Below, piece after piece: positions 7,670-44,300 of a DNA stretch of 64,000 nt. The DNA lies in contig CM050672.1 in assembly GCA_027574665.1 (NCBI GenBank), positions 10,214,001 to 10,278,000 of the forward strand, given 5' to 3'. Under the pieces are notes generated by a model, which saw nothing but the letters and a program-made list of their open reading frames with translations, was not told the origin of the DNA and ran no database searches. This DNA comes from Rhynochetos jubatus. Taxonomy: Eukaryota > Chordata > Aves > Eurypygiformes > Rhynochetidae. Each line of letters starts with the position of its first letter. The first letter of the stretch is position 1. A program made the position numbers and the translations under genes.

Positions 7670-7733
7670 CCTGGCTTGCTCCGCCCCCTGCTCTTGATAT
7701 TCTCCTGGATGTGGGCTGCATTTTGGCTGCTTA

Positions 7734-22024: not shown

Positions 22025-25023
22025 TGCCTTGCTCCACCCCCTGCTCTTGATATTCTCCCGGATGTGTGCTGGATTTTGGCTGCCTTTTGGGCTGGAGCTT
22101 CTCGTGGTTTGAGGCCTGGCTTCCTCCACCCCCTGCTCTTGAGATTCTCCCAGATGTGGGCTGCATTTTGGCTGCCTTTTGGGCTGGAGCTTCTCATGGT
22201 TTGAGGCCTGCCTTGCTCCACCCCCTGCTCTTGAGATTCTCCCGGATGTTGGCTGCATTTTGGCTGCTTTTTGGGCTGGAGCTTCTCAAGGTTTGAGGCC
22301 TGGCTTCCTCCACCCCCTGCTCTTGAGATTCTCCCGGAGGTGGGCTGGATTTTGGCTGCCTTTTGGGCTGGAGCTTCTCGTGGTTTGGGGCATGGCTGGC
22401 TCCACACCCTGCTCTTGATATTCTCCCAGATGTGGACTGCATTTTGGCTGATTTTTGGGCTGGAGCTTCTCGTGGTTTGAGGCCTGCCTTCCTCCAAGCC
22501 CTGCTATTGATATTCTCCCGGATGTGATCTGCATTTTTGCTGCAATTTCGGCTGGAGCTTCTCGTGGTTTGAACCCTGCCTTGCTCCATCCCCTGCTCTT
22601 GAGATTCTCCCGGATGTGGGCTGGATTTTGGCTGCCTTTTGGGCTGGAGCTTCTCGTGGTTTGAGGCCTGGCTTGCTCCAACCCCAGCTCTTGATATTCT
22701 CCTGCAGGTGGTCTGGATTTTGGCTGCCTTTTGGGCTGGAGCTTCTTGTGGTTTGAGGCTGCCTTGCTCCAACACCTGCTCTTGATATTCTCCCTTATAT
22801 GGGCTGGATTTTGGCTGCATTTTGGGCTGGAGCTTCTCGTGGTTTGAGGCCTGACTTGCTCCACCTCCTGCTCTTGATATTCTCCCGGATGTTGGCTGGA
22901 GTTTGGCTGCCTTTTGGGCTGGAGCTTCTCATGGTTTGATGCCTGGCTTGCTCCACCCCCTGCTCTTGAGATTATACCGGATGTGGGCTGCATTTTGGCT
23001 GCCTTTTGGGCTGGAGCTTCTCGTGGTTTGAGGCCTGGCTTGCTCCACCCCCTGCTCTTGATATTCTCCCTTATATGGGCTGGATTTTGGCTGCCTTTTG
23101 GGCTGGAGCTTCTCGTGGTTTGAGGCCTGGATTACTCCAACCCCTGCTCTTGATATTCTCCCAGATGTGGGCTGCATTTTGGCTGCCTTTTGGACTGGAG
23201 CTTCTCGTGGTTTGAGGCCTGACTTGCTCCACCTCCTGCTCTTGAGATTCTCCCGGATGTTGGCTGGAGTTTGGCTGCCTTTTGGGCTGGAGATTCTCGT
23301 GGTTTGAGGCCTGCCTTCCTCCAACCTCTGCTCTTGATATTCTCCTGGATGTGGGCTGCATTTTGGCTGCCTTTTGGGCTGGAGCTTCTCATGCTTTGAG
23401 GCCTGGCATGCTCCACCCCCTGCTCTTGAGATTCTCCCGGATGTGGGCTACATTTTGGCTGCCTTTTAGGCTGGAGCTTCTCGTGGTTTGAGGCCTGCCT
23501 TCCTCCAACCTCTGCTCTTGATATTCTCCTGGATGTGGGCTGCATTTTGGCTGCATTTTGGGCTGGAGCTTCTCATGCTTTGAGGCCTGGCTTGCTCCAC
23601 CCCCTGCTCTTGAGATTCTCCTGGATGTGGGCTGCATTTTGTCTGCATTTTGGGCTGGAGCTTCTCGTGGTTTGAGGCCTGGCTTGCTCCACCCCCTGCT
23701 CCTGAGATTCTCCCGGAGGTGGGCTGCATTTTGGCTGCCTTTTGGGCTGGAGCTTCTCGTGGTTTGAGGCCTGGCTTGCTCCACCCCCTGCTCTTGAGAT
23801 TCTCCCGGATGTGGGCTGCATTTTGGCTGCCTTTTGGGCTGGAGCTTCTCGTGGTTTGATGCCTGCCTTGCTCCATCCCCTGCTCTTGAAATTCTCCCGG
23901 ATGTGGGCTGGAGTTTAACTGCATTTTGGGCATGGAGCTTCTCGTGGTTTGAGGCCTGACTTGCTCCACCCCTTGCTCATAATATTCTCCCAGATGTGCC
24001 CTGGATTTTGGCTGCATTTTGGACTGGAGCTTCTCGTGGTTTGAGGCCTGGTTTCCTCCGCTCCCTGCCCATGATATTCTCCCGGATGTGGGTAGGATTT
24101 TGGCTACCTTTCGGGCTGGAGCTTCTCGTGGTTTGAGGCCTGGCTTGCTCCACCCCTTGCTCTTGAGATTCTCCCGGAGGTGGGCTGCATTTTGGCTGCA
24201 TTTTGGGCTGGAGCTTCTCGTGGTTTGAGGCCTGGCTTGCTCCACCCCCTGCTCTTGATATTCTCCTGGATGCGGGCTGGATTTTGGCTGCCTTTTGGGC
24301 TGGAGCTTCTCGTGGTTTGAGGCCTGGCTTGCTCCACCCCCTGCTCTTGAGATTCTCCCAGATGTGGGCTGCATTTTGGCTGCCTTTTGGGCAGGAGTTT
24401 CTCATGGTTTGAGGCCTGGCTTGCTCCACCCCCTGCTCTTGCTATTCTCCCGGATGTGGGCTGCATTTTCGCTGTGGTTTGGGCTGGAGATTCTCGTGGT
24501 TTGCGACCTGGCTTGCTCCACCCCCTGCTCTTGATATTCTCCCTTATATGGGCTGGATTTTGGCTGCCTTTTGGGCTGGAGCTTCTCGTGGTTTGAGGCC
24601 TGGCTTGCTCCACCCCCTGCTCTTGAGATTCTCCCGGATGTGGGCTGCATTTTGGCTGCCTTTTGGACTGGAGCTTCTCGTGGTTTGAGGCCTGGCTTGC
24701 TCCACCCCCTGCTCTTGAGTTTCTCCCGGATGTGGGCTGCATTTTTGTTGCCTTTTGGGCTGGAGCTTCTCATGCTTTGAGGCCTGGCTTGCTCCACCCC
24801 CTGCTCTTGAGATTCTCCCGGATCTGGGCTGGATTTTGGCTGCATTTTGGGCTGGAGCTTCTCGTGGTTTGAGGCCTGGCTTGCTCCACCCCCTGCTCTT
24901 GAGATTCTCCCGGATGTGGGCTGCATTTTGGCTGATACTTGGGCTGGAGCTTCTCGTGGTTTGAGGCCTGGCTTCCTCCAACCTCTGCTCTTGAGATTCT
25001 CCCCGATGTGGGCTGCATTTTAT

Positions 25024-28000
25024 CTGCCTTTTGGGCTGGAGTTTCTCATGGTTTGAGGCCTGGCTTGCTCCACAACCTGCTCTTGCTATTCTCCCGGATG
25101 TGGGCTGCATTTTCGCTGCCTTTTGGGCTGGAGATTCTCGTGGTTTGAGGCCTGGCTTGCTCCACCCCCTGCTCTTGAGATTCTCCCAGATGTGTTCTGC
25201 ATTTTGGCTGCCTTTTGGACTGGAGCTTCTCGTGGTTTGAGGCCTGGCTTGCTCCACCCCCTGCTCTTGAGTTTCTCCCGGATGTGGGCTGCATTTTTGC
25301 TGCCATTTCGGCTGGAGCTTCTCGTGGTTTGAGGCCTGGCTTGCTCCACCCCCTGCTCTTGAGATTCTCCAAGATTTGGGCTGCATTTTGGCTGCCTTTT
25401 GGGCTGGAGCTTCTCGTGGTTTGAGGCCTGCATTGCTACCACCGCAGCTCTTTATATTCTCCCGGATGTGGCCTGCATTTTGGCTGCCTTTTGGACTGGA
25501 GCTTCTCGAGGTTTGAGGCCTGACTTGCTCCACCCCCTGCTCTTGAGATTCTCCCGGATGTGGGCTGCATTTTGGCTGCCTTTTGGGCTGGAGCTTCTCG
25601 TGGTTTGAGGCCTGGCTTGCTCCACCCCCTGCTCTTGAGATTCTCCCGGATGTGGGCTGCATTTTGGCTGCCTTTTGGGCTGGAGCTTCTCGTGGTTTGA
25701 GGCCTGGCTTGCTCCACCCCCTGCTCTTGAGATTCTCCCGGATGTGGGCTGCATTTTGGCTGATATTTCGGCTGGATCTTCTCGTGGTTTGAGGCCTGGC
25801 TTGCTCTACCCAATGCTCTTGAGATTCTCCTGGATGTGGGCTGCATTTTGGCTGCCTTTTGGGCTGCAGCTTCTCGTGGTTTGAGGCCTGGCTTGCTCCA
25901 CCCCTTGCTATTGAGATTCTCCCGGAGGTGGGCTGCATTTTGGCTGCTTTTTGGGCTGGAGCTTCTCGTGGTTTGAGGCCTGGCTTGCTCCACCCCCTGC
26001 TCTTGATATTCTCCCGGGTGTGGGCTGGATTTTGGCTGCCTTTTGGGCTGGAGCTTCTCATGGTTTGAGGCCTGGCTTGCTCCACCCCCTGCTCTTGAGA
26101 TTCTCCCGGATGTTTGCTGCATTTTGGCTGATTTTTGGGCTGGAGCTTCTCGTGGTTTGAGGCCTGCCTTCCTCCAAGCACTGCTCTTGATATTCTCCTG
26201 GATGTGGGCTGCATTTTTGCTGCCATTTCGGCTGGAGCTTCTCGTGGTTTGAACCCTGCCTTGCTCCATCCCCTGCTCTTGAGATTCTCCCGGATGTGGG
26301 CTGGATTTTGGCTGCCTGTTGGGCTGGAGCTTCTCGTGGTTTGAGGCCTGCCTTCCTCCAAGCACTGCTCTTGAGATTCTCCCGGATGTGGGCTGCATTT
26401 TGGCTGCCTTTTGAACTGGAGCTTCCTGTGGTTTGAGGCCTGCCTTGCTCCACCCCCTGCTCTTGATATTCTCCCGGATGTGTGCTGGATTTTGGCTGCC
26501 TTTTGGGCTGGAGCTTCTCGTGGTTTGAGGCCTGGCTTGCTCCACCCCCTGCTCTTGATATTCTCCCGGATGTTGGATGGATTTTGGCTGCTTTTTGGGC
26601 TGGAGCTTCTCGTGGTTTGAGGCCTGGCTTCCTCCACCCCCTGCTCTTGAGATTCTCCCAGATGTGGGCTGCATTTTGGCTGCCTTTTGGGCTGGAGCTT
26701 CTCATGGTTTGAGGCCTGCCTTGCTCCACCCCCTGCTCTTGAGATTCTCCCGGATGTTGGCTGCATTTTGGCTGCTTTTTGGGCTGGAGCTTCTCAAGGT
26801 TTGAGGCCTGGCTTCCTCCACCCCCTGCTCTTGAGATTCTCCCGGAGGTGGGCTGGATTTTGGCTGCCTTTTGGGCTGGAGCTTCTCGTGGTTTGGGGCA
26901 TGGCTGGCTCCACACCCTGCTCTTGATATTCTCCCAGATGTGGACTGCATTTTGGCTGATTTTTGGGCTGGAGCTTCTCGTGGTTTGAGGCCTGCCTTCC
27001 TCCAAGCCCTGCTATTGATATTCTCCCGGATGTGATCTGCATTTTTGCTGCCATTTCGGCTGGAGCTTCTCGTGGTTTGAACCCTGCCTTGCTCCATCCC
27101 CTGCTCTTGAGATTCTCCCGGATGTGGGCTGGATTTTGGCTGCCTTTTGGGCTGGAGCTTCTCGTGGTTTGAGGCCTGGCTTGCTCCAACCCCAGCTCTT
27201 GATATTCTCCTGCAGGTGGTCTGGATTTTGGCTGCCTTTTGGGCTGGAGCTTCTTGTGGTTTGAGGCTGCCTTGCTCCAACACCTGCTCTTGATATTCTC
27301 CCGGATGTTGGCTGGAGTTTGGCTGCCTTTTGGGCTGGAGCTTCTCATGGTTTGATGCCTGGCTTGCTCCACCCCCTGCTCTTGAGATTATACCGGATGT
27401 GGGCTGCATTTTGGCTGCCTTTTGGGCTGGAGCTTCTCGTGGTTTGAGGCCTGGCTTCCTCCAACCTCTGCTCTTGATATTCTCCTGGATGTGGGCTGCA
27501 TTTTGGCTGCCTTTTGGGCTGGAGCTTATCGCGGTTTGAGGCCTGGCTTGCTCCACCCCCTGCTCTTGAGATTCTCCCGGATGTGGGCTGCATTTTGGCT
27601 GCCTTTTGGGCTGGAGTTTCTCATGGTTTGAGGCCTGGCTTGCTCCACAACCTGCTCTTGCTATTCTCCCGGATGTGGGCTGCATTTTCGCTGCCTTTTG
27701 GGCTGGAGATTCTCGTGGTTTGAGGCCTGGCTTGCTCCACCCCCTGCTCTTGAGATTCTCCCAGATGTGTTCTGCATTTTGGCTGCCTTTTGGACTGGAG
27801 CTTCTCGTGGTTTGAGGCCTGGCTTGCTCCACCCCCTGCTCTTGAGTTTCTCCCGGATGTGGGCTGCATTTTTGCTGCCATTTCGGCTATAGCTTCTCGT
27901 GGTTTGAGGCCTGGCTTGCTCCACCCCCTGCTCTTGAGATTCTCCAAGATTTGGGCTGCATTTTGGCTGCCTTTTGGGCTGGAGCTTCTCGTGGTTTGAG

Positions 28001-28045
28001 GCCTGCATTGCTACCACCGCAGCTCTTTATATTCTCCCGGATGTG
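25024..28045 (-). repeat. Dispersed five-unit duplication
   Basis: About 450 bp at 25,024-25,470 recur at 27,599-28,045 (offset 2,575 bp). Shared rare variants are CTCCACAACCTGCTC, GATGTGTTCTGC, TCTCCAAGATTTGGG and GCTACCACCGCAGCTC. A related stretch at 27,330-27,720 matches 28,158-28,550 at 828 bp (nine units). Together they show overlapping rounds of copying in the last 7 kb of the left arm. Confidence 0.7.
25525..27445 (-). repeat. Partial third copy of the higher-order block
   Basis: This segment matches 21,110-23,030 at an offset of 4,416 bp (48 units). The offset is 4,508 bp between about 26,580 and 27,300, where this copy has one extra unit, and it returns to 4,416 after one unit is lost. 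Shared marks include TACCCAATGCTC, TGGGCTGCAGC, the TTGAACTGGAGCTTCCTG unit, and the 91-bp unit with TTTGAGGCTGCCTTGC (22,750 and 27,258). The paired gain and loss of single units shows small slippage events after the large copy. Confidence 0.82.
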
Positions 28046-28065
28046 GGCTGCATTTTGGCTGCCTT

Positions 28066-30610
28066 TTGGGCTGTAGCTTCTCGTGGTTTGAGGCCTGGAT
28101 TTCTCCAACCCCTGCTCTTGATATTCTCCCGGATGTGGGCTGCATTTTGGCTGCCTTTTGGGCTGGAGATTCTCATGCTTTGAGGCCTGGCTTGCTCCAC
28201 CCCCTGCTCTTGAGATTCTCCCGGATGTGGGCTGCATTTTGGCTGCCTTTTGGGCTGGAGCTTCTCGTGGTTTGAGGCCTGCCTTCCTCCAACCTCTGCT
28301 CTTGATATTCTCCTGGATGTGGGCTGCATTTTGGCTGCCTTTTGGGCTGGAGCTTTTCGCGGTTTGAGGCCTGGCTTGCTCCACCCCCTGCTCTTGAGAT
28401 TCTCCCGGATGTGGGCTGCATTTTGGCTGCCTTTTGGGCTGGAGTTTCTCATGGTTTGAGGCCTGGCTTGCTCCACAACCTGCTGTTGCTATTCTCCCGG
28501 ATGTGGGCTGCATTTTCGCTGCCATTTGGGCTGGAGATTCTCGTGGTTTGAGGCCTGGCTTGCTCCACCCCCTGCTCTTGAGATTCTCCCTTATATGGGC
28601 TGGATTTTGGCTGCCTTTTGGGCTGGAGCTTCTCGTGGTTTGAGGCCTGGTTTCCTCCGCTCCCTGCCCATGATATTCTCCCGGATGTGGGTAGGATTTT
28701 GGCTACCTTTTGGGCTGGAGCTTCTCGTGGTTTGAGGCCTGGCTTGCTCCACCCCTTGCTCTTGAGATTCTCCCGGAGGTGGGCTGCATTTTGGCTGCAT
28801 TTTGGGCTGGAGCTTCTCGTGGTTTGAGGCCTGGCTTGCTCCACCCCCAGCTCTTGATATTCTCCCTTATATGGGCTGGATTTTGGCTGCCTTTTGGGCT
28901 GGAGCTTCTCGTGGTTTGAGGCCTGACTTGCTCCACCCCTTGCTCATAATATTCTCCCAGATGTGCCCTGGATTTTGGCTGCATTTTGGGCTGGAGCTTC
29001 TCGTGGTTTGAGGCCTGCCTTGCTCCATCCCCTGCTCTGGATATACTCCCGGATGTGGGCTGCATTTTGGCTGCCTTTTGGGCTGGAGCTTCTCGTGGTT
29101 TGAGGCCTGCCTTCCTCGAGCCCCTGCTCTTGAGATTCTCCCGGATGTGGGCGGCATTTTGGCTGCCTTTTGAACTGGAGCTTCCTGTGGTTTGAGGCCT
29201 GCCTTGCTCCACCCCCTGCTCTTGATACTCTCCCGGATGTGTGCTGGATTTTGGCTGCCTTTTGGTTTGGAGGTCTCGTGGTTTGAGCCCTGGCTTGCTC
29301 CAGCCCCTGCTCTTGAGATTCTCCCAGATGTGGGCTGGATTTTGGCTGCCTTTTGGGCTGGAGCTTCTCGTGGTTTGAGGCCTGGCTTGCTCCACCAACT
29401 TCTCTTGATATTCTCCCAGATGTGTGCTGGATTATGGCTGCCTTTTGGGCTGGAGCTTCTTGTGGTTTAAGGCCTGGCTTGCTTCACTTTCTGCCCTTGA
29501 TATTCTCCCGGAGGTGGGCTGCATTTTGGCTGCATTTTGGGCTGGAGCTTCTCGTGGTTTGAGGCCTGGCTTGCTCCACCCCCTGCTCTTGATATTCTCC
29601 CGGATGTGGGCTGGATTTTGGCTGCCTTTTCGGCTGGAGCTTCTCGTGGTTTGAGGCCTGGCTTGCTCCACCCCCTGCTCTTGAGATTCTCCCAGATGTG
29701 GGCTGCATTTTGGCTGCCTTTTGGGCTGGAGTTTCTCATGGTTTGAGGCCTGGCTTGCTCCACCCCCTGCTCTTGCTATTCTCCCGGATGTGGGCTGCAT
29801 TTTCGCTGTCGTTTGGGCTGGAGCTTCTCGTGGTTTGAGGCCTGGCTTGCTCCACCCCCTGCTCTTGAGATTCTCCCTTATATGGGCTGGATTTTGGCTG
29901 CCTTTTGGGCTGGAGATTCTCGTGGTTTGAGGCCTGGATTGCTCCAACCTCTGCTCTTTATATTCTCCCGGATGTGGCCTGCATTTTGGCTGCCTTTTGG
30001 ACAGGAGCTTCTCGAGGTTTGAGGCCTGACTTGCTCCACCTCCTGCTCTTGAGATTCTCCTGGATGTGGGCTGCATTTTGGCTGCCTTTTGGGCTGGAGC
30101 TTCTCGTGGTTTGAGGCCTGGATTTCTCCAACCCCTGCTCTTGATATTCTCCCGGATGTGGGCTGCATTTTGGCTGCCTTTTGGGTTGGAGATTCTCATG
30201 CTTTGAGGCCTGGCTTGCTCCACCCCCTGCTCTTGAGATTCTCCCGGATGTGGGCTGCATTTTGGCTGCATTTTGGGCTGGAGCTTCTCGTGGTTTGAGG
30301 CCTGCCTTCCTCCAACCTCTGCTCTTGATATTCTCCTGGATGTGGGCTGCATTTTGGCTGCCTTTTGGGCTGGAGCTTATCGCGGTTTGAGGCCTGGCTT
30401 GCTCCACCCCCTGCTCTTGAGATTCTCCCGGATGTGGGCTGCATTTTGGCTGCCTTTTGGGCTGGAGTTTCTCATGGTTTGAGGCCTGGCTTGCTCCACA
30501 ACCTGCTCTTGCTATTCTCCCGGATGTGGACTGCATTTTCGCTGCATTTTGGGCTGGAGCTTCTCGTGGTTTGAGGCCTGGCTTGCTCCACCCCCTGCTC
30601 TTGAGATTCT
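28066..30610 (-). repeat. Duplicated block, 22-unit spacing
   Basis: Positions 28,066-28,590 recur at 30,089-30,610 with an offset of 2,023 bp. Both carry GATTTCTCCAACCCC, GATTCTCATGCTTTGAGG, the GCGGTTTGAGG unit and CTCCACAACCTGCT. Separately, 24,030-24,220 matches 28,630-28,820, sharing TTTCCTCCGCTCCCTGCCC and GGGTAGGATTTTGGC. Confidence 0.65.
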
Positions 30611-31552
30611 CCCTTATATGGGCTGGATTTTGGCTGCCTTTTGGGCTGGAGCTTCTCGTGGTTTGACTCCTGGTTTCCTCTGCTCCCTGCCCATGATATT
30701 CTCCCGGATGTGGGCTGGATTTTGGCTACCGTTTGGGCTGGAGCTTCTCGTGGTTTGAGGCCTGCATTGCTCCAACCCCAGCTCTTGATATTCTCCTGCA
30801 GGTGGGCTGGATTTTGGCTGACACTTGGGCTGGAAATTCTCATGGTTTGAGGCCTGCCTTGCTCCATCCCCTGCTCTTGAAATTCTCCCGGATGTGGGCT
30901 GGAGTTTAGCTGCCTTTTGGGCTGGAGCTTCTCGTGGTTTGAGGCCTGGCTTGCTCCACCCCCTGCTCATAATATTCTCCCAGATGTGCACTGGATTTCG
31001 GCTGAATTTTGGGCTGGAGATTCTCGTGGTTTGAGGCCTGCCTTGTTCCACCCCCTGCTCTTGATATTCTCCCGGATGTGGGCTGCATTTTGGCTGCCTT
31101 TTGGGCTGGAGCTTCTCGTGGTTTGAGGCCTGGCTTGCTCCACGCCCTGCTCTTGAGATTCTCCCGGATGTGGGCTGCATTTTGGCTGCCTTTTGGGCTG
31201 GAGCTTCTCGTGGTTTGAGGCCTGGCTTCCTCCACCCCCTGCTCTTGAGATTCTCCCGAATGAGGGCTGCATTTTGGCTGCCTTTTGGGCTGGAGCTTCT
31301 CGTGGTTTGAGGCCTGGCTTGCTCCACCCCCTGCTCTTGAGATTCTCCCGGATGTGGGCTGCATTTTGGCTGCGTTTTGGGCTGGAGCTTCTCGTGGTTT
31401 GAGGCCTGGCTTGCTCCACCCCATGCTCTTGAGATTCTCCCGGATGTGGGCTGCATTTTGGCTGCCTTTTGGGCTGGAGCTTCTCGTGGTTTGAGGCCTG
31501 TCTTGCTCCACCCCCTGCTCTTGATATTCTCCCGGTTGTGGGCTGCATTTTG

Positions 31553-31826
31553 GCTGTATTTTGGCTGGAGCTTCTCGTGGTTTGGGGCCTGGCTTGTTCC
31601 ACCCCCTGCTCTTGAGTTTCTCCCGGATGTGGGCTGCATTTTGGCTGTATTTTGGCTTTAGGTTCTCGTGGTTTGGGGCCTGGCTTGTTCCACCCCCTGC
31701 TCTTGAGTTTCTCCCGGATGTGGGCTGCATTTTGGCTGTATTTTGGCTGGAGCTTCTCGTGGTTTGGGGCCTGCCTTGCTCCACCCCCTGCTCTTGAGAT
31801 TCTCCCGCATGTTGGCTGGATTTTGG
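31553..31826 (-). repeat. Three consecutive 91-bp derived units beside the junction
   Basis: Three units share the plus-strand form GCTGTATTTTGGCT in place of GCTGCCTTTTGGGCT, which removes one base. They also carry TTTGGGGCC in place of TTTGAGGCC, and two of them have TTGTTCC and GAGTTTCTCC. The middle unit has a further change near 31,650 (TTTAGGTTCTCG). The set occurs nowhere else in the window that I can see. It ends at the orientation switch, so it appears to be a small private amplification at the end of the left arm. Confidence 0.85.
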
Positions 31827-31891
31827 ATTTGGAGAATCTCAAGAGCAGAGGGTGGAGCAAGGCAGGCCTCAAACCACGAGAAGCTCCAGCC
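31745..31891. repeat. Orientation-switch junction with short inverted repeat
   Basis: Minus-oriented units run up to GGCTGGATTTTGG (ending 31,826). ATTT follows, and plus-oriented sequence starts at GGAGAATCTCAAGAG (31,831). The 15-base CTCTTGAGATTCTCC at 31,791-31,805 is the exact complement of 31,831-31,845, with a 25-nt spacer. The match continues outward for 61 bp (31,745-31,805 against 31,831-31,891) with two mismatches. Both arms share the less common GCAAGGCAGG variant next to the junction. Beyond this first unit the arms do not mirror each other. Any two opposed monomers would match at most positions, so the shared variant is the only extra evidence for a fold-back origin. An assembly join cannot be excluded. 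Confidence 0.9.
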
Positions 31892-33059
31892 CAAAAGGCA
31901 GCCAAAATCCAGCCCACATCTGGGAGAATCTCAAGAGCAGGGGGTGGAGCAAGCCAGGCCTCAAACCACGAGAAGCTCCAGCCCAAAAGGCAGCCAAAAT
32001 GCAGCCCACCTCAGGGAGAATCTCAAGAGCAGGGGGTGGAGCAAGCCAGGCCTCAAACCACGAGAAGCTCACGCTCAAATTACAGCAAAAATCCAGCCCA
32101 ACTCTGGAAGAATATGAAGAGCAGGGGGTGGAGCAAGCCAGGCCTCAAACCATGAGAAGCTCCAGCCCAGAAAGGCAGCCAAAATCCAGCCCACCTCCAG
32201 GAGAATATGAAGAGCACGGGATAGAGCAAGCCAGGCCTGAAACCAGGAGAAGCTCCAGCCCAAAAGGCAGCCAAAATCCAGCCCACATCCAGGAGAATCT
32301 CAAGAGCAGGGGGTGGAGCAAGCCAGGCCTCAAACCACGAGAAGCTCCAGCCCAAAATATAGCCAAAATCCAGCCCACCTCTGGGGGAATATCAAGAGCA
32401 GGGGTTGGAGCAAGCCAGGCCTCAAACCACGAGAACTCCAGCTCAAAATGCAGCCAAAATGCAGCCCACATCCGGGAGAATATCAAGAGCAGGGGGTGGA
32501 GCAAGCCAGGCCTCAAACCACGAGAAGCTCCAGCCCAAAAAGCAGCCAAAATCCAGCCCACATCTGGGAGAATCTCAAGAGCAGGGGGTGGAGCAAGCCA
32601 GGCCTCAAACCACGAGAAGCTCCAGCCCAAAAGGCAGCCAAAATGCAGCCCACATCCGGGAGAATATCAAGAGCAGGGGGTGGAGCAAGCCAGGCCTCAA
32701 ACCACGAGAAGCTCCAGCCCAAAAAGCAGCCAAAATCCAGCCCATCTGCAGGAGAATCTCAAGAGCAGGGGGTGGAGCAAGCCAGGCCTCAAACCACGAC
32801 AAGCTCCAGCCCAAAATGGAGCCAAAATCCAGCCCACATCTGGGAGATTATTAAGAGCAGGGAGTGGAGCAAGCCAGGCCTCAAACCACGAGAAGCTCCA
32901 GCTCAAAATGCAGACAAAATGCAGCCCACATCTGGGAGAATCTGAAGAGCAGGGGGTGGAGCAAGCCAGGCCTCAAACCATGAGAAGATCCAGCCGAAAA
33001 AGCAGCCAAAATCCAGCCCACATCCGGGAGAATCTCAAGAGCAGGGGGTGGAGCAAGCC

Positions 33060-36000
33060 AGGCCTCAAACCACGAGAAGCTCCAGCTCAAAATGCAGCCA
33101 AAATGCAGCCCACCTCCGGGAGAATCTGAAGAGCAGGGGGTGGAGCAAGCCAGGCCTCAAACCATGAGAAGCTCCAGCCCAAAAAGCAGCCAAAATGCAG
33201 CCCATATCCGGGAGAATCTCAAGAGCAGGGGGTGGAGCAAGCCAGGCCTCAAACCACAAGAAGCTCCAGCCCAAAAGGCAGCCAAAATCCAGGCCCCGTC
33301 CGGGAGAATATCAAGAATAGGAAGTGAAGAAAGCCAGGCCTCAAACCAGGAGAAGCTCCAGCCCAAAAGGCAGCCAAAATACAGCGCACATCCGGGAGAA
33401 TCTCAAGAGCAGGGGGTGGAGCAAGCCAGGCCTCAAACCACGAGAAGCTCCAGCCGAAAATGCAGCCATAATTCAGACCACATCCGGGAGAATCTGAAGA
33501 GCAGGGTGTGGAGCAAGCCAGGCCTCAAACCATGAGAAGCTCCAGCCCAAAAAGCAGCCAAAATGCAGCCCACATCCGGGAGAATCTCAAGAGCATGGGG
33601 TGGAGCAAGCCAGGCCTCAAACCACAAGAAGCTCCAGCCCAAAAAGCAGCCAAAATCCAGCCCACCTGCAGGAGAATCTCAAGAGCAGGGGGTGTAGCAA
33701 GCCAGGCCTGAAACCACGAGAAGCTCCAGCCCAAATGGCAGCCAAAATCCAGACCACATCCGGGAGAATCTCAAGAGCAGGGGGTGGAGCAAGCCAGGCC
33801 TCAAACCACGAGAAGCTCCAGCCCAAAATGCAGCCATATTCCAGCCCATATCTGGGAGATTATCAAGAGCAGGGGGTGGAGCAAGCCAGGCCTCAAACCA
33901 CGAGAAGCTCCAGCCCAAAATCCAGCCATAATCCAGCCCACATCTGGGAGAATCTCAAGAGCAGGGGGTGGAGCAAGCCAGGCCTCAAACCACGAGAAGC
34001 TCCAGCCCAAAAGGCAGCCAAAATGCAGGCCACATCCGGGAGAATCTCAAGAGCAGGGGGTGGAGCAAGCCAGGCCTCAAACCACGAGAAGCTCCAGCCG
34101 AAATCAGCCAAAATGCAGCCCACATCCGGGAGAATCTCAAGAGCAGGGGGTGGAGCAAGCCAGGCCTCAAACCACGAGAAGCTCCAGCTCAAAATGCAGC
34201 CAAAATGCAGCCCACCTCCGGGAGAATCTGAAGAGCAGGGGGTGGAGCAAGCCAGGCCTCAAACCATGAGAAGCTCCAGCCCAAAAAGCAGCCAAAATGC
34301 AGCCCATATCCGGGAGAATCTCAAGAGCAGGGGGTGGAGCAAGCCAGGCCTCAAACCACAAGAAGCTCCAGCCCAAAAGGCAGCCAAAATCCAGGCCCCG
34401 TCCGGGAGAATATCAAGAATAGGAAGTGAAGAAAGCCAGGCCTCAAACCAGGAGAAGCTCCAGCCCAAAAGGCAGCCAAAATACAGCGCACATCCGGGAG
34501 AATCTCAAGAGCAGGGGGTGGAGCAAGCCAGGCCTCAAACCACGAGAAGCTCCAGCCGAAAATGCAGCCATAATTCAGACCACATCCGGGAGAATCTGAA
34601 GAGCAGGGGGTGGAGCAAGCCAGGCCTCAAACCATGAGAAGCTCCAGCCCAAAAAGCAGCCAAAATGCAGCCCACATCCGGGAGAATCTCAAGAGCATGG
34701 GGTGGAGCAAGCCAGGCCTCAAACCACGAGAAGCTCCAGCCGAAATCAGCCAAAATGCAGCCCACATCCGGGAGAATCTCAAGAGCAGGGGGTGTAGCAA
34801 GCCAGGCCTGAAACCACGAGAAGCTCCAGCCCAAATGGCAGCCAAAATCCAGACCACATCCGGGAGAATCTCAAGAGCAGGGGGTGGAGCAAGCCAGGCC
34901 TCAAACCACGAGAAGCTCCAGCCCAAAATGCAGCCATATTCCAGCCCATATCTGGGAGATTATCAAGAGCAGGGGGTGGAGCAAGCCAGGCCTCAAACCA
35001 CGAGAAGCTCCAGCCCAAAATCCAGCCATAATCCAGCCCACATCTGGGAGAATCTCAAGAGCAGGGGGTGGAGCAAGCCAGGCCTCAAACCACGAGAAGC
35101 TCCAGCCCAAAAGGCAGCCAAAATGCAGGCCACATCCGGGAGAATCTCAAGAGCAGGGGGTGGAGCAAGCCAGGCCTCAAACCACGAGAAGCTCCAGCCG
35201 AAATCAGCCAAAATGCAGCCCACATCCGGGAGAATCTCAAGAGCAGGGGGTGGAGCAAGCCAGGCCTCAAACCATGAGAAGCTCCAGCCGAAATCAGCCA
35301 AAATGCAGCCCACATCCGGGAGAATATCAAGAGCAGGGGGTGGAGCAAGCCAGGCCTCAAACCATGAGAAGGTCCAGCCCAAAAAGCAGCCAAAATGCAG
35401 CCCAAATCTGGGAGAATCTGAAGAGCAGGGGGTGGAGCAAGCCAGGCCTCAAACCATGAGAAGCTCCAGCCGAAAAAGCAGCCAAAATCCAGCCCACATC
35501 CGGGAGAATCTCAAGAGCAGGGGGTGGAGCAAGCCAGGCCTCAAACCACGAGAAGCTCCAGCCCAAAAGGCAGCCAAAATGCAGCCCACATCTGGGAGAA
35601 TCTGAAGAGCAGGGGGTGGAGCAAGCCAGGCCTCAAACCATGAGAAGCTCCAGCCCAAAAAGCAGCCAAAATGCAGCCCACATCCGGGAGAATCTCAAGA
35701 GCATGGGGTGGAGCAAGCCAGGCCTCAAACCACAAGAAGCTCCAGCCCAAACAGCAGCCAAAATCCAGCCCACCTGCAGGAGAATCTCAAGAGCAGGGGG
35801 TGTAGCAAGCCAGGCCTCAAACCACGAGAAGCTCCAGCCCAAATGGCAGCCAAAATCCAGACCACATCCGGGAGAATCTCAAGAGCAGGGGGTGGAGCAA
35901 GCCAGGCCTCAAACCACGAGAAGCTCCAGCCCAAAATGCAGCCATATTCCAGCCCATATCTGGGAGATTATCAAGAGCAGGGGGTGGAGCAAGCCAGGCC

Positions 36001-39000
36001 TCAAACCATGAGAAGCTCCAGCCCAAAAGGTAGCCAAAATGCAGCCCACATCCGGGAGAATATCAAGAGCAGGGGTTGGAGAAACCCAGGCCTCAAACCA
36101 CGAGAAGCTCCAGCCCAAAATCCAGCCATAATCCAGCCCACATCTGGGAGAATCTCAAGAGCAGGGGGTGGAGCAAGCCAGGCCTCAAACCACGAGAAGC
36201 TCCAGCCCAAAAGGCAGCCAAAATGCAGCCCACATCCGGGAGAATCTCAAGAGCAGGAGGTGGAGCAAGCCAGGCCTCAAACCACGAGAAGCTCCAGCCG
36301 AAATCAGCCAAAATGCAGCCCACATCCGGGAGAATCTCAAGAGCAGGGGGTGGAGCAAGCCAGGCCTCAAACCACGAGAAGCTCCAGCCCAAAAGGCAGC
36401 CAAAATCCAGCCCACATCTGGGAGATTATCAAGAGCAGGGAGTGGAGCAAGCCAGGCCTCAAACCACGAGAAGCTCCAGCTCAAAATGCAGACAAAATGC
36501 AGCCCACATCTGGGAGAATCTGAAGAGCAGGGGGTGGAGCAAGCCAGGCCTCAAACCATGAGAAGATCCAGCCGAAAAAGCAGCCAAAATCCAGCCCACA
36601 TCCGGGAGAATCTCAAGAGCAGGGGGTGGAGCAAGCCAGGCCTCAAACCACGAGAAGCTCCAGCTCAAAATGCAGCCAAAATGCAGCCCACCTCCGGGAG
36701 AATCTGAAGAGCAGGGGGTGGAGGAAGCCAGGCCTCAGACCACGAAAAGCTCCAGCCCAAGTATCAGGCAAAATGCAGCCCACATCCGGGAGAATCTCAA
36801 GAGCAGGGGGTGGAGCAAGCCAGGCCTCAAACCACGAGAAGCTCCAGCCCAAAAGGCAGCCAAAATGCAGCCCACATCCAGGAGAATATCAAGAGCAGGG
36901 GGTGGAGCAAGCCAGGCCTCAAACCACAAGAAGCTCCAGCCCAAAAGGCAGCCAAAATCCAGGCCCCGTCCGGGAGAATATCAAGAATAGGAAGTGAAGA
37001 AAGCCAGGCCTCAAACCAGGAGAAGCTCCAGCCCAAAAGGCAGACAAAATACAGCGCACATCCGGGAGAATCTCAAGAGCAGGGGGTGGAGCAAGCCAGG
37101 CCTCAAACCACGAGAAGCTCCAGCCGAAAATGCAGCCATAATTCAGACCACATCCGGGAGAATCTGAAGAGCAGGGGGTGGAGCAAGCCAGGCCTCAAAC
37201 CATGAGAAGCTCCAGCCCAAAAAGCAGCCAAAATGCAGCCCACATCCGGGAGAATCTCAAGAGCATGGGGTGGAGCAAGCCAGGCCTCAAACCACTAGAA
37301 GCTCCAGCCCAAAAAGCAGCCAAAATCCAGCCCACCTGCAGGAGAATCTCAAGAGCAGGGGGTGTAGCAAGCCAGGCCTCAAACCACGAGAAGCTCCAGC
37401 CCAAATGGCAGCCAAAATGCAGCCCACATCCGGGAGAATCTCAAGAGCAGGGGGTGGAGCAAGCCAGGCCTCAAACCACGAGAAGCTCCAGCCCAAAATG
37501 CAGCCATATTCCAGCCCATATCTGGGAGATTATCAAGAGCAGGGGGTGGAGCAAGCCAGGCCTCAAACCATGAGAAGCTCCAGCCCAAAAGGCAGCCAAA
37601 ATGCAGCCAACATCCGGGAGAATATCAAGAGCAGGGGTTGGAGAAACCCAGGCCTCAAACCACGAGAAGCTCCAGCCCAAAATCCAGCCAAAATCCAGCC
37701 CACATCTGGGAGAATCTCAAGAGCAGGGGGTGGAGCAAGCCAGGCCTCAAACCACGAGAAGCTCCAGCCCAAAAGGCAGCCAAAATGCAGCCCACATCCG
37801 GGAGAATATCAAGAGCAGGGGGTGGAGCAAGCCAGGCCTCAAACCACGAGAAGCTCCAGCCGAAATCAGCCAAAATGCAGCCCACATCCGGGAGAATCTC
37901 AAGAGCAGGGGGTGGAGCAAGCCAGGCCTCAAACCATGAGAAGCTCCAGCCGAAATCAGCCAAAATGCAGCCCACATCCGGGAGAATATCAAGAGCAGGG
38001 GGTGGAGCAAGCCAGGCCTCAAACCATGAGAAGCTCCAGCCCAAAAAGCAGCCAAAATGCAGCCCAAATCTGGGAGAATCTGAAGAGCAGGGGGTGGAGC
38101 AAGCCAGGCCTCAAACCATGAGAAGCTCCAGCCGAAAAAGCAGCCAAAATCCAGCCCACATCCGGGAGAATCTCAAGAGCAGGGGGTGGAGCAAGCCAGG
38201 CCTCAAACCACGAGAAGCTCCAGCCCAAAAGGCAGCCAAAATGCAGCCCACATCTGGGAGAATCTGAAGAGCAGGGGGTGGAGCAAGCCAGGCCTCAAAC
38301 CATGAGAAGCTCCAGCCCAAAAAGCAGCCAAAATGCAGCCCACATCCGGGAGAATCTCAAGAGCATGGGGTGGAGCAAGCCAGGCCTCAAACCACGAGAA
38401 GCTCCAGCCCAAACAGCAGCCAAAATCCAGCCCACCTGCAGGAGAATCTCAAGAGCAGGGGGTGGAGCAAGCCAGGCCTCAAACCACGAGAAGCTCCAGC
38501 CCAAATGGCAGCCAAAATCCAGACCACATCCGGGAGAATCTCAAGAGCAGGGGGTGGAGCAAGCCAGGCCTCAAACCACGAGAAGCTCCAGCCCAAAATG
38601 CAGCCATATTCCAGCCCATATCTGGGAGATTATCAAGAGCAGGGGGTGGAGCAAGCCAGGCCTCAAACCATGAGAAGCTCCAGCCCAAAAGGTAGCCAAA
38701 ATGCAGCCCACATCCGGGAGAATATCAAGAGCAGGGGTTGGAGAAACCCAGGCCTCAAACCACGAGAAGCTCCAGCCCAAAATCCAGCCATAATCCAGCC
38801 CACATCTGGGAGAATCTCAAGAGCAGGGGGTGGAGCAAGCCAGGCCTCAAACCACGAGAAGCTCCAGCCCAACAGGCAGCCAAAATGCAGCCCACATCTG
38901 GGAGAATCTGAAGAGCAGGGGGTGGAGCAAGCCAGGCCTCAAACCATGAGAAGCTCCAGCCCAAAAAGCAGCCATAATTCAGACCACATCTGGGAGAATA

Positions 39001-41000
39001 TCAAGAGCAGGGGGTGGAGTAAGCCAGGCCTCAAACCACGAGAAGCTCCAGCCCAAAAAGCAGCCAAAATGCATCCCACCTCCGGGAGAATCTCAAGAGC
39101 AGGGGGTGGAGCAAGCCAGGCCTCAAACCATGAGAAGCTCCAGCCCAAAATGCAGACAAAGTACAGCCCAACTCCGGGAGAAATTCGAGAGCAGGGGGTG
39201 GAGCAAGCCAGGCCTCAAAACACGAGAAGCTCCAGCCCAATATGCAGTAAAAATCCAGCACATACCCGGGAGAATATCAAGAGCAGGGGGTGGAGCAAGT
39301 CAGGCCTCAAACCACGAGAAGCTCCAGCCCAAAAGGCAGCCAAAATGCAGCCCACATCCGGGAGAATCTCAAGAGCAGGGGGTGGAGCAAGCCAGGCCTC
39401 AAACCACGAGAAGCTCCAGCCCAAAAGGCAGCCAAAATGCAGCCCACCTCCGGGAGAATTTCAAGAGCAGGGGGTGGAGCAAGGCAGGCCTCAAACCACG
39501 AGAAGCTCCAGCCCAAAATGCAGACAAAATTCAGCCCACATCCGGGAGAATCTCAAGAGCAGGGGCTAGAGCAATATTGGCCATAAAACACGAGAAGCTC
39601 CAGCCCAAAAGGCAGCCAAAATGCAGCCCACATCCGGGAGAATCTCAAGAGCAGGGGTTGGAGCAAGCCAGGCCTCAAAACACGAGAAGCTCCAGCCCAA
39701 AATGCAGCCATAATGCAGCCCACATCCGGGAGAATCTCAAGAGCAGGGGGTGGAGCAAGCCAGGCCTCAAACCACGAGAAGCTCCAGCCCAAAACGCAGC
39801 CAAAATGCAGCCCACATCTGGGAGAATCTGAAGAGCAGGGGGTGGAGCAAGCCAGGCCTCAAACCATGAGAAGCTCCAGCCCAAAAAGCAGCCAAAATGC
39901 AGCCCACATCCGGGAGAATCTCAAGAGCATGGGGTGGAGCAAGCCAGGCCTCAAACCACGAGAAGCTCCAGCCCAAACAGCAGCCAAAATCCAGCCCACC
40001 TGCAGGAGAATCTCAAGAGCAGGGGGTGTAGCAAGCCAGGCCTCAAACCACGAGAAGCTCCAGCCCAAATGGCAGCCAAAATCCAGACCACATCCGGGAG
40101 AATCTCAAGAGCAGGGGGTGGAGCAAGCCAGGCCTCAAACCACGAGAAGCTCCAGCCCAAAATGCAGCCATATTCCAGCCCATATCTGGGAGATTATCAA
40201 GAGCAGGGGGTGGAGCAAGCCAGGCCTCAAACCATGAGAAGCTCCAGCCCAAAAGGTAGCCAAAATGCAGCCCACATCCGGGAGAATATCAAGAGCAGGG
40301 GTTGGAGAAACCCAGGCCTCAAACCACGAGAAGCTCCAGCCCAAAATCCAGCCATAATCCAGCCCACATCTGGGAGAATCTCAAGAGCAGGGGGTGGAGC
40401 AAGCCAGGCCTCAAACCACGAGAAGCTCCAGCCCAAAAGGCAGCCAAAATGCAGCCCACATCCGGGAGAATCTCAAGAGCAGGGGGTGGAGCAAGCCAGG
40501 CCTCAAACCACGAGAAGCTCCAGCCGAAATCAGCCAAAATGCAGCCCACATCCGGGAGAATCTCAAGAGCAGGGGGTGGAGCAAGCCAGGCCTCAAACCA
40601 CGAGAAGCTCCAGCCCAACAGGCAGCCAAAATGCAGCCCACATCTGGGAGAATCTGAAGAGCAGGGGGTGGAGCAAGCCAGGCCTCAAACCATGAGAAGC
40701 TCCAGCCCAAAAAGCAGCCATAATTCAGACCACATCTGGGAGAATATCAAGAGCAGGGGGTGGAGTAAGCCAGGCCTCAAACCACGAGAAGCTCCAGCCC
40801 AAAAAGCAGCCAAAATGCATCCCACCTCCGGGAGAATCTCAAGAGCAGGGGGTGGAGCAAGCCAGGCCTCAAACCATGAGAAGCTCCAGCCCAAAATGCA
40901 GCCAAAGTACAGCCCAACTCCGGGAGAAATTCGAGAGCAGGGGGTGGAGCAAGCCAGGCCTCAAAACACGAGAAGCTCCAGCCCAATATGCAGTAAAAAT
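33060..41000 (+). repeat. Six-fold repeated block of about 11-17 units
   Basis: A recognisable unit with GAGCATGGGGTGGAGC occurs near 33,593, 34,695, 35,701, 37,263, 38,363 and 39,927. In most copies it is followed two units later by GGGGGTGTAGCAAGCC, then by CAAATGGCAGCC and GCAGCCATATTCC. Spacings are 1,102, 1,006, 1,562, 1,100 and 1,564 bp, about 11, 12 or 17 units. An extra segment with ATCAAGAATAGGAAGTGAAG is present at 33,312, 34,414 and 36,982. The copies differ by whole units gained or lost, as expected from unequal crossing over. Confidence 0.82.
34090..40535 (+). repeat. 90-bp unit subfamily
   Basis: Eight units read CCAGCCGAAATCAGCC where the consensus has CCAGCCCAAAAGGCAGCC, a loss of two bases. 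They lie near 34,098, 34,739, 35,199, 35,289, 36,298, 37,860, 37,951 and 40,524. All are in the right arm within the 33-41 kb block, and two pairs are adjacent. They share one origin and have been carried along by block duplication. Confidence 0.85.
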
Positions 41001-41332
41001 CCAGCACATACCCGGGAGAATATCAAGAGCAGGGGGTGGAGCAAGTCAGGCCTCAAACCACGAGAAGCTCCAGCCCAAAAGGCAGCCAAAATGCAGCCCA
41101 CCTCCGGGAGAATTTCAAGAGCAGGGGGTGGAGCAAGGCAGGCCTCAAACCACGAGAAGCTCCAGCCCAAAATGCAGACAAAATTCAGCCCACATCCGGG
41201 AGAATCTCAAGAGCAGGGGCTAGAGCAATATTGGCCATAAAACACGAGAAGCTCCAGCCCAAAAGGCAGCCAAAATCCAGCCCACATCCGGGAGAATCTC
41301 AAGAGCAGGGGTTGGAGCAAGCCAGGCCTCAA

Positions 41333-44300
41333 AACACGAGAAGCTCCAGCCCAAAATGCAGCCATAATGCAGCCCACATCCGGGAGAATCTCAAGAGCAG
41401 GGGGTGGAGCAAGCCAGGCCTCAAACCACGAGAAGCTCCAGCCCAAAAGGCAGACAAAATCCAGCGCACATCCGGGAGAATCTCAAGAGCATGGGGTGGA
41501 GCAAGCCAGGCCTCAAAACACGAGAAGCTCCAGCCCAAAAGGCAGCCAAAATGCAGCCCACATCTGGGAGAATCTCAAGAGCAGGGGGTGGAGCAAGCCA
41601 GGCCTCAAACCACGAGAAGCTCCAGACCAAAAAGCAGTAAAAATCCAGCGCATACCCGGGAGAATATCAAGCGCAGGGGGTGGAGCAAGCCAGGCCTCAA
41701 ACCACGAGAAGCTCCAGCCCAAAAGGCAGCCAAAATGCAGCCCACATCCGGGAGAATCTCAAGAGCAGGGGGTGGAGCAAGCCAGGCCTCAAACCATGAG
41801 AAGCTCCAGCCCAACAGGCAGCCAAAATGCAGCCCACATCCGGGAGAATCTCAAGAGCAGGGGGTGGAGCAAGCAAGGCCTCAAACCATGAGAAGCTCCA
41901 GCCCAAACTGCAGCCAAAATGCAGCCCACATCCGGGACAATTTCAAGAGCAGGGGGTGGAGCAAGCAAGGCCTCAAACCATGAGAAGCTCCAGCCCAAAC
42001 TGCAGCCAAAATGCAACACACATCCGGGAGAATCTCAAGAGCAGAGGGTGGAGCAAGCCAGGCCTCAAACATCGAGAAGCTCCAGCCCAAAGGCAGCCAA
42101 AATGCAGCCCACATCCAGGAGAATCTCAAGAGCAGAGGGTGGAGCAAGCCAGGCCTCAAACCACAAGAAGCTCCAGCCCAAAAGGCAGCCAAAATGCAGC
42201 CCACATCCGGGAGAATCTCAAGAGCAGGGGGTGGAGCAAGCCAGGCCTCAAACCTCGAGATTCTCCAGCCCAAAAGGCAGCCAAAATGCAGCCCACATCC
42301 GGGAGAATCTCAAGAGCAGGGGGTGGAGCAAGCCAGGCCTCAAACCACGAGAAGCTCCAGCCCAAAAGGCAGCCAAAATGCAGCCCACATCCGGGAGAAT
42401 CTCAAGAGCAGGGGTTGGAGCAAGGCAGGCCTCAAACCTCGAGAAGCTCCAGCCCAAAAGGCAGCCAAAATGCAGCCCACATCCGGCAGAATCTCAAGAG
42501 CAGGGGGTGGAGCAAGCCAGGCCTCAAACCACGAGAATTTCCAGCCCAAATATCAGCCAAAATCCAGCCCACATCCGGGAGAATCTCAAGAGCAGGGGGT
42601 GGAGCAAGCCAGGCCTCAAACCACGAGAAGCTCCAGCCCAAAAGGCAGCCAAAATGCAGCCCACATCCGGGAGAATCTCAAGAGCAGGGGGTGGAGCAAG
42701 CCAGGCCTCAAACCACGAGAAGCTCCAGCCCAATAGGCAGCCAAAATGCAGCCCACATCCGGGAGAATCTCAAGAGCAGGGTGTGAAGCAAGGAGGCCAC
42801 AATCCACGAGAAGCTCCAGCCCAAGAATCAGCCAAAATCCAGCCCACTTCCGGGAGACTACCAAGAGCACGGGGTGGAGCAAGCCAGGCCTCAAACCACA
42901 AGAAGCTCCAGCCCAAAATGCAGCCAAAATGCAGCCCACATCCGGGAGAATATCAAGAGCAGGGGGTGGAGCAAGCCAGGCCTCAAACCATGAGAAGCTC
43001 CAGCCCAATATGCAGTAAAAATCCAGCGCATACCCGGGAGAATATCAAGAGAAGGGGGTGGAGCAAGCCAGGCCTCAAACCACAAGAAGCTCCAGCCCAA
43101 AAAGCAGCCAAAATGCAGCCCACCTCCGGGAGAATCTCAAGAGCAGGGGGTGGAGCAAGCCAGGCCTCAAACCATGAGAAGCTCCAGCCCAAAATGCAGC
43201 CAAAGTACAGCCCAACTCCGGGAGAAATTCGAGAGCAGGGGGTGGAGCAAGCCAGGCCTCAAAACACGAGAAGCTCCAGCCCAATATGCAGTAAAAATCC
43301 AGCACATACCCGGGAGAATATCAAGAGCAGGGGGTGGAGCAAGTCAGGCCTCAAACCACGAGAAGCTCCAGCCCAAAAGACAGCCAAAATGCAGCCCACC
43401 TGCAGGAGAATCTCAATAGCAGGGTGTGGAGCAAGCCAGGCCTCAAACCACGAAAAGCTCCAGCCCAAATATCAGCCAAAATGCAGCCCACCTCCGGGAG
43501 AATTTCAAGAGCAGGTTGTGGAGCAAGCCAGGCCTCAAACCACGAGAAGCTCCAGCCCAAAAGAAGCCACAATCCAGCCCACATCCGGGAGAATCTCAAG
43601 AGAAGGGGGTGGAGCAAGCCAGGCCTCAAAACACAAGAAGCTCCAGCCCAAAAAGCAGCCAAAATCCAGCCCACCTGCAGGAGAATCTCAAGAGCAGAGG
43701 GTGGAGCAAGCCAGGCCTCAAACCATGAGAAGCTCCAGCCCAAAATGCAGCCAAAATCCAGCGCACATCCGGGAGAATCTCAAGAGCAGGGGTTGGAGCA
43801 AGCCAGGCCTCAAACCTCGAGATTCTCCAGCCCAAAAGGCAGCCAAAATGCAGCCCACATCCGGGAGAATCTCAAGAGCAGGGGGTGGAGCAAGCCAGGC
43901 CTCAAACCACGACAAGCTCCAGCCCAAAATGCAGCCAAAATGCAGCCCACATCTGGGAGAATCTGAAGAGCAGGGGGTGGAGCAAGCCAGGCCTCAAACC
44001 ACGAGAAGCTCCAGCCCAAAAGGCAGCCAAAATGCAGCCCACATCCGGGAGAATCTCAAGAGCAGGGGGTGGAGCAAGCCAGGCCTCAAACCACGAGAAG
44101 CTCCAGCCCAAAAGGCAGCCAAAATGCAGCCCACATCCGGGAGAATCTCAAGAGCAGGGGCTAGAGCAATATTGGCCATAAAACACGAGAAGCTCCAGCC
44201 CAAAAGGCAGCCAAAATCCAGCCCACATCCGGGAGAATCTCAAGAGCAGGGGGTGGAGCAAGCCAGGCCTCAAAACACGAGAAGCTCCAGCCCAAAAGGC

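What the first reader, a model, noticed from the sequence alone, without database searches (positions are those of the whole stretch)
31745..31891. Abrupt orientation switch splits the array into two opposed arms
All units left of about 31,826 point one way and all units right of 31,831 the other. The switch sits in a hairpin-capable sequence with 15-bp perfect arms, extending to 61 bp with two mismatches, and a 25-nt spacer. Both flanking units carry GCAAGGCAGG. Seen: the switch and the shared variant. Inference: a single inversion or fold-back template switch, or a centre where opposed arrays meet. The non-mirrored order of variants beyond one unit argues against a recent large palindrome.
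Basis: partly seen in the sequence, partly recalled or inferred. Interest (0 to 1): 0.7.

Follow-up and report, generated by a model that had tools for sequence, protein, structure and literature searches.

The report
Dispersed satellite orientation switch, single origin
The point where a 92-bp satellite reverses direction is not a local accident: the same breakpoint sits at dozens of places across this genome, inside arrays that run outward from such a switch towards spacer blocks, so it looks like an old scar copied with the arrays and hard to lose by ordinary recombination.

Summary
The whole 64-kb window is one 92-bp satellite: 345 of 345 tiles left of 31,826 are on the minus strand, 349 of 349 right of 31,831 on the plus strand. 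The reading needs changing. The same breakpoint (J1, TTTTGG|ATTT|GGAGAAT in the 20 fetched copies) lies at 54 assembled places on 36 contigs of this 1.33-Gb genome; all 20 fetched are true switches. Two other switch types (J2, 5 places; J3, 12 places) were found; the one fetched copy of each has the same polarity. Orientation sampling suggests a rule: minus-to-plus changes are abrupt and inside satellite (22 of 22 pinned), while plus-to-minus changes hold non-satellite spacer (5 of 5 bracketed). Between contigs, left arms match left arms and right arms match right arms, at shifted unit register; 0 of 190 pairs share a cross-arm block at the strict cut. Best explanation: an old switch copied with the arrays, which recombination can flip but hardly erase. 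The hairpin is what any two opposed units give; the shared GCAAGGCAGG is confined to one sub-group. Closest known: Tribolium macro-dyad satellites and spacer-punctuated subterminal caps of apes. Function is untested; some places may be alleles.

The parts
1..31826 (-). left arm: 92-bp satellite, units on the minus strand (samples show it runs on beyond the window)
31831..64000 (+). right arm: the same 92-bp satellite, units on the plus strand (samples show it runs on beyond the window); majority consensus identical to the left arm's
31827..31830 (.). ATTT filler at the breakpoint J1; the same in the 20 fetched copies and in the listed pattern matches (which allow at most 3 mismatches)
31821..31837 (+). 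J1 core TTTTGGATTTGGAGAAT: zero diversity in the 20 fetched loci; some other listed places differ at the first one or two T's
31806..31830 (+). 25-nt unpaired middle of the inverted repeat: 21 nt of a truncated left unit plus ATTT
31741..31805 (-). left arm of the hairpin-capable inverted repeat
31831..31895 (+). right arm of the hairpin-capable inverted repeat

Best explanation
J1 is an old, single-origin rearrangement scar. Once, two opposed stretches of the 92-bp satellite were joined with a 4-nt filler. The satellite-plus-spacer macro-units that carry it were then copied to many places by exchange between heterochromatic blocks. Each macro-unit reads spacer - minus arm - switch - plus arm - spacer. 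Within an arm, unequal exchange adds and removes units, so flanks drift and shift register. An exchange between direct units cannot remove a switch without also removing a spacer. An exchange between the opposed arms only flips the switch. The breakpoint is therefore trapped and kept without needing selection. Shown: the recurrence; one polarity in the switches pinned; non-satellite spacer in the opposite changes bracketed; same-arm homology with register shifts. Inferred: single origin, the copying route, and passive topological retention as the cause.
For: Same breakpoint at 54 places on 36 contigs; backward-pattern controls 0. 20 of 20 fetched copies are true minus/plus switches with the same ATTT. 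Among 190 locus pairs, 43 share a left-left block and 48 a right-right block (5 or more units, 98% or more), and 0 a cross-arm block; blocks resume at shifted register. Minus-to-plus changes pinned to the base: 22 of 22 inside satellite (20 J1, which were found by their sequence, and one J2 and one J3 found by orientation sampling). Plus-to-minus changes bracketed by samples: 5 of 5 have a non-satellite sample between the arms. Of 31 neighbouring switch pairs, 12 have exactly one spacer site between them and none has two. Neighbouring switches are 14 opposite and 17 same in orientation, as flipping would allow. Simulated exchange (300 runs x 300 events): 0 violations in 752 boundary checks, alternation kept in 300 of 300 runs, J orientation 252 to 274.
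Against: 19 of 31 neighbouring switch pairs showed no spacer site between them; only 40 of 220 spacer candidates were scored, so this is silent rather than negative. The brackets were sampled, not walked base by base, and the one on C126 is 300 kb wide. J2 and J3 show that switches arose more than once, which a single event does not explain. Flipping should mix distal arms; only +-5 kb (the window +-32 kb) could be examined, and no mixing was seen there. At a looser cut (4 or more units, 97%) 111 cross-arm runs appear, against 390 left-left and 581 right-right. The simulation starts from alternating arrays and leaves out end joining. The 54 places are not independent: some may be alleles.
Confidence: 0.68

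Rival explanations
1. The switch is kept because it works: a dyad centre (hairpin or protein-binding site) that organises heterochromatin, replication or a kinetochore, as proposed for the conserved inversion sites of Tribolium satellites.
For: The 17-bp core has zero diversity in 20 loci, while diversity averages 0.080 over 17-bp windows of the +-8 units. A 155-nt stretch folds at -78 kcal/mol, z -16.5. Mirror identity of the two flanking units is higher within than between loci, P 0.0004 by permutation.
Against: Copies were found by similarity to the core, so its invariance is partly built in; 14 of 1481 windows, itself included, are as invariant. The mirror signal rests on one variant and disappears inside sub-groups (0.962 v 0.962, 0.935 v 0.935, 0.956 v 0.957). 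Any opposed pair of units folds this way. J2 and J3 have other sequences and fillers.
Confidence: 0.17
2. Recurrent local formation: the same sequence breaks and folds back again and again at a preferred site.
For: Three switch types exist, the fetched ones with one polarity, and hairpin-capable sequence lies at the J1 site.
Against: The identical 4-nt filler at 54 places and same-arm flank homology between contigs (from 5 to 54 units) point to descent. Fold-back should leave mirrored arms, and none are seen at J1 or J3.
Confidence: 0.08
3. A single recent inversion or fold-back at this locus.
For: One abrupt switch in the window.
Against: The same breakpoint at 53 other places; no mirror order.
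Confidence: 0.02
4. Assembly artefact: a false join of opposed contigs.
For: The sequence is highly repetitive and no reads could be examined.
Against: False joins would not be expected to repeat the same breakpoint and 4-nt filler, with different flanking variants, on 36 contigs.
Confidence: 0.02

Closest known systems
Macro-dyad satellite arrays of Tribolium madens and congeners (PMC13081366; section 7 read whole, other passages by search)
   Same: One satellite in two opposed sub-arrays with an abrupt switch inside; a few recurrent, highly conserved inversion-site types over many arrays (INV_1a, INV_1b, INV_2); signs of exchange between arrays on different contigs.
   Different: Unrelated satellite and a larger scale (switch-to-spacer distances with quartiles 301-489 kb, n=34, against a longest annotated macro-dyad of 75 kb); here the opposite change holds a non-satellite spacer, 33-39 kb at the one measured closely; far fewer copies; the paper says such arrays were documented only in Tribolium.
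Spacer-punctuated subterminal heterochromatic caps of gorilla, chimpanzee, bonobo and siamang (PMC12058530; section 19 read whole, other passages by search)
   Same: Satellite tracts of several hundred kb interrupted at intervals by copies of a spacer (32-34 kb, siamang 57 kb), dispersed over many chromosome ends.
   Different: That section mentions no reversal of satellite direction between spacers; here the arms converge on the spacer from both sides and a switch lies between spacers. Chromosomal position and methylation are unknown here.
Fold-back inversions and breakage-fusion-bridge palindromes (recalled, no call)
   Same: Opposed copies joined with a short filler and a small asymmetric loop.
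   Different: These leave mirrored arms; none are left at J1 or J3.

Membership tests
macro-dyad satellite arrays (Tribolium type) | both sub-arrays are the same satellite in opposite orientation | tested here: met
   identical majority consensus, 345 of 345 and 349 of 349 tiles
macro-dyad satellite arrays (Tribolium type) | few recurrent inversion-site sequences shared by many arrays | tested here: met
   J1 54 places, J2 5, J3 12; 22 of these 71 were fetched and seen as switches
macro-dyad satellite arrays (Tribolium type) | organisation confirmed on raw long reads | not testable with these tools
   no reads held
macro-dyad satellite arrays (Tribolium type) | arm lengths tend to symmetry | tested here: inconclusive
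   switch-to-spacer distances 162-1343 kb, median 389, n=34, with elements missing from the list
macro-dyad satellite arrays (Tribolium type) | lies in (peri)centromeric heterochromatin | not testable with these tools
   no centromere map; contigs are unnamed
ape-type spacer-punctuated caps | satellite tracts broken by copies of one spacer | tested here: met
   a 300-bp spacer piece at 24 sites, from 40 matches scored of 220 candidates; only a few sites were sampled beyond that piece
ape-type spacer-punctuated caps | subterminal position and hypomethylated spacer | not testable with these tools
   no methylation data; the C27 array lies near a contig end whose last sample is neither satellite nor telomere repeat
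recent fold-back palindrome | arms mirror each other unit by unit | tested here: not met

The most novel reading that the evidence does not exclude
The switch and the spacer are alternating organising centres of this heterochromatin. J-type dyads are kept by function (pairing, replication or kinetochore seeding), and opposed arms let whole blocks flip by recombination while the alternation stays fixed, so satellite direction would be a maintained architectural feature in this genome as has been proposed in beetles.
Probability: 0.15. Interest if true: 0.85.

Novelty: new variant of a known kind. Interest (0 to 1): 0.64.

Why it matters
Satellite arrays are usually treated as one-way and endlessly reshuffled. 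Here a base-precise, slowly changing landmark sits inside arrays, so arrays on different contigs can be recognised as descendants and their arms compared in register. That makes exchange between chromosomes, local unit turnover and inversion rates measurable. It gives a large-scale counterpart to the beetle macro-dyads in a genome whose samples hold TTAGGG repeats, and a null model (retention by topology alone) that any claim of function for conserved inversion sites should first exclude.

Tried and rejected
Fold-back origin from mirror order: no shared blocks between arms, mirror pairs at background beyond the first unit. The shared GCAAGGCAGG as a mark of origin: rejected, confined to one sub-group. 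Spacer as one large palindrome: suggested by the paired 300-bp hits 5,984 bp apart and written in note 5, then withdrawn in note 6: samples at mirrored places +-12 and +-16 kb do not match, and mirrored satellite at +-20 to +-44 kb matches only at background, 88-91%. Selection on the core: not shown. Naming the organism or satellite: text search for six 14- to 16-letter words of the unit found 0 papers, two searches for a 92-bp monomer gave 0 papers and one on soybean that I did not open, and an exact scan of viral contigs found 0. No Rfam match in the window at the gathering score. The 5,991-bp spacer piece was only listed for open frames and tandem repeats, not searched for families. J2 and J3 arms: at 97% only short runs of 5-6 units to J1 arms of either side. 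A family search (PF02422) meant to show a bird or reptile genome did not complete, so 'bird' is only a guess from genome size and TTAGGG repeats. Two of four contigs sampled for unlisted switches, C130 and C132, showed no satellite in 5 samples each.

Full report
WHAT IS IN THE WINDOW. The 64,000 bases are one satellite with a 92-bp unit. Units left of 31,826 lie on the minus strand and units right of 31,831 on the plus strand: 345 of 345 and 349 of 349 tiles. The majority consensus of the two arms is identical. Mean unit identity is 90.1% within the left arm, 91.4% within the right and 90.5% between them. Each arm has its own recent block duplications: a 27-unit block on the left, and a 30-unit block repeated in tandem on the right. 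No block of 5 or more units at 97.5% or better is shared between arms; the best cross-arm runs are 5 units at 97.2%, and the reversed-order control gives 97.2-97.4%. The mirror order that a recent fold-back would leave is absent.

THE HAIRPIN AND THE SHARED VARIANT. The inverted repeat has 65-nt arms, 95% complementary, around 25 nt, with an inner perfect stem of 18 bp, and folds well as DNA. That follows from placing any two units head to head: 34% of all left-right unit pairs match at least as well over those columns. The GCAAGGCAGG variant is on both flanks in 7 of 19 loci, all in one sub-group of 8; the eighth member has it on one flank, and the other 11 loci on neither (the twentieth locus, L014, was dropped there as a near-copy of L012). 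I infer that it came after the switch. The permutation signal for mirror identity at the first unit (P 0.0004) rests on this variant and vanishes inside sub-groups; units 2 to 6 show no signal (P 0.13 to 0.83).

THE SAME SWITCH ELSEWHERE. A search of the window's own genome (1.33 Gb, 148 contigs) with the 147-bp finding gave matches over at least 145 of the 147 bases at 40 places, the 40 scored of 2,105 candidates. Pattern searches with three forms of the junction, up to 3 mismatches, gave 38, 52 and 49 places, each with 0 for the pattern read backwards. The union of these four calls is 54 places on 36 contigs. I fetched 20 of the 40 places at about 10 kb each. All 20 are abrupt minus-to-plus switches with the same TTTTGG|ATTT|GGAGAAT. 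Sub-forms differ at single bases; one (GCTGGAGTTTGG..TTCAGGAGC) accounts for 14 exact places. C53 and C141 agree at 99.8-99.9% over 54 units on each side, and C34 and C116 share the order J1-J2-J1 with similar spacing, so some places may be alleles or long duplications.

HOW THE COPIES ARE RELATED. Seven other copies at 3 kb each (six other contigs and C27 itself) agree with the window's at about 99-100% for some 300 bp to 1.7 kb around the junction, then fall to background. This is not loss of homology: in 10-kb copies, high-identity blocks resume at a shifted unit number. Among 190 pairs of the 20 loci there are 175 left-left and 277 right-right blocks of 5 or more units at 98% or better (in 43 and 48 pairs), and no left-right block. 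The remaining pairs share no block at that cut. At the looser setting of 4 units and 97%, 111 cross-arm runs appear against 390 and 581; at 6 units and 97.5%, and at 8 units and 97%, there are none. The arms behave as separate lineages in which units are added and removed.

THE LARGER PLAN. Samples along C27 show non-satellite DNA at 0.1, 5, 8 and 9.1 Mb, then minus - J1 (9.553 Mb) - plus - spacer - minus - J1 (10.246, this window) - plus - spacer - minus - J1 (11.082) - plus, and non-satellite at the contig end. The spacer at 10.89 Mb is between 33 and 39 kb long: samples at 10.877-10.910 Mb are not regular satellite, those at 10.874 and 10.914 Mb are. The spacer at 9.90 Mb is between 28 and 51 kb by the same kind of sampling. 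I then sampled four contigs that were not in the lists. C130 and C132 showed no satellite in 5 samples each. C133 has J2, with a (CTT)n filler, at 1,210,554. C126 has J3, with a 26-nt filler, at 1,173,282, and turned out to carry a J1 at 0.391 Mb as well. J2 occurs at 5 places and J3 at 12 (10 contigs), all exact. The 22 switches pinned to the base (20 J1, one J2, one J3) are minus-to-plus and inside satellite; only J2 and J3 were found without their sequence. The 5 plus-to-minus changes that I bracketed have a non-satellite sample between the arms: two on C27 and one each on C126, C133 and C120; the brackets were sampled, not walked. A 300-bp spacer piece matched at 24 sites (40 matches scored of 220 candidates), at 16 of them as two inverted copies, 5,984 bp apart at 13 of the 16. 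Placed on one map with the 69 switches then known, 12 of 31 neighbouring switch pairs have exactly one spacer site between them, 19 have none found and none has two. Neighbouring switches are opposite in 14 and alike in 17 cases.

HOW IT MOST LIKELY WORKS. Shown: the recurrence, the single polarity of the switches pinned, the non-satellite spacer in the opposite changes bracketed, the separate arms near J1. Inferred: one origin for J1, spread of whole macro-units by exchange between heterochromatic blocks, and passive retention. Exchange between direct units changes arm length or removes and duplicates switch-plus-spacer pairs; exchange between opposed arms flips a switch or spacer and leaves the order. 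A small simulation of these two kinds of event kept alternation in 300 of 300 runs, with 0 violations in 752 checks and switch orientation close to even. It starts from alternating arrays and omits end joining, so it illustrates the logic and is not evidence about this genome. What made J1, J2 and J3 is not known; end joining of opposed satellite ends would fit the short fillers.

IS IT UNDER SELECTION? The 17-bp core shows no diversity in 20 loci, but 14 of 1,481 windows, itself included, are as invariant, and the loci were found by similarity to the core. Not shown.

COMPARISON. Tribolium madens has satellite arrays with opposed sub-arrays and conserved inversion sites, which its authors call macro-dyad symmetries, the longest 75 kb, and describe as known only from Tribolium (PMC13081366; section 7 read whole in two parts, other passages by search). 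A search for 'macro-dyad' plus 'satellite' listed two papers, that one and one whose passages with the term are in its reference list. The subterminal caps of African apes have satellite tracts of 335-536 kb broken by 32-34 kb spacers, and siamang a 57-kb spacer about every 750 kb (PMC12058530, section 19 read whole; other passages by search); a search of that paper for 'opposite orientation' and 'inverted orientation' gave two passages on other matters. The listings of my searches showed no title or abstract start with both features together; I opened only the papers named here and passages of the complete chicken genome paper (PMC9974502), and the library holds open-licence papers only. The case works like the beetle arrays and is laid out like the ape caps; I file it as a new variant of a known kind.

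LIMITS. No reads, methylation, centromere map or second individual. Organism unnamed. Flanks beyond 5 kb were held only for the window (and, on one side, for J3). Counts are of assembled places and are lower bounds for the patterns used; 49 of the 71 listed switch places were not fetched.

Noticed in passing
window about 42.6-51.1 kb: A 30-unit block (period about 2,757 bp) is repeated in tandem at 99.7% identity: a young higher-order repeat in the right arm (coordinates derived from unit numbers).
   Followed up: partly
window about 17.1-22.1 kb: A 27-unit block is duplicated in tandem at 99.7% identity in the left arm (coordinates derived from unit numbers).
   Followed up: partly
L051, L062, L125, L156 (C27, C126, C133): Spacers or array ends hold arrays of a GC-rich unit of about 23 bp (GGGGCGAGGGGGCGGGGCTTAAG); contig C120 begins in a related array.
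   Followed up: no
L053, L060 (C27 spacer flanks): Degenerate older repeats with GGAGAAATTCCAGCCC-like motifs lie between spacer and satellite; the 92-bp unit may descend from a unit of about 23 bp (not tested).
   Followed up: no
C27:9.90 and 10.89 Mb and 14 other sites: The spacer contains a 300-bp piece in two inverted copies: 13 sites 5,984 bp apart (99-100% to the query) and 3 sites about 3.8 kb apart (97-98%).
   Followed up: partly
L032 (C27:9.1 Mb), L088 (C133:1.7 Mb): Short TTAGGG / CCCTAA telomere-type repeats in samples outside the satellite on contigs that carry satellite arrays.
   Followed up: no
L029, L075, L077, L080 (C27, C130, C132): Another dispersed repeat, with shared motifs such as GGAATTTCTTAGCGAAAC and CCTCCAAAAGGG, recurs by eye in samples from contigs with and without the satellite.
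   Followed up: no
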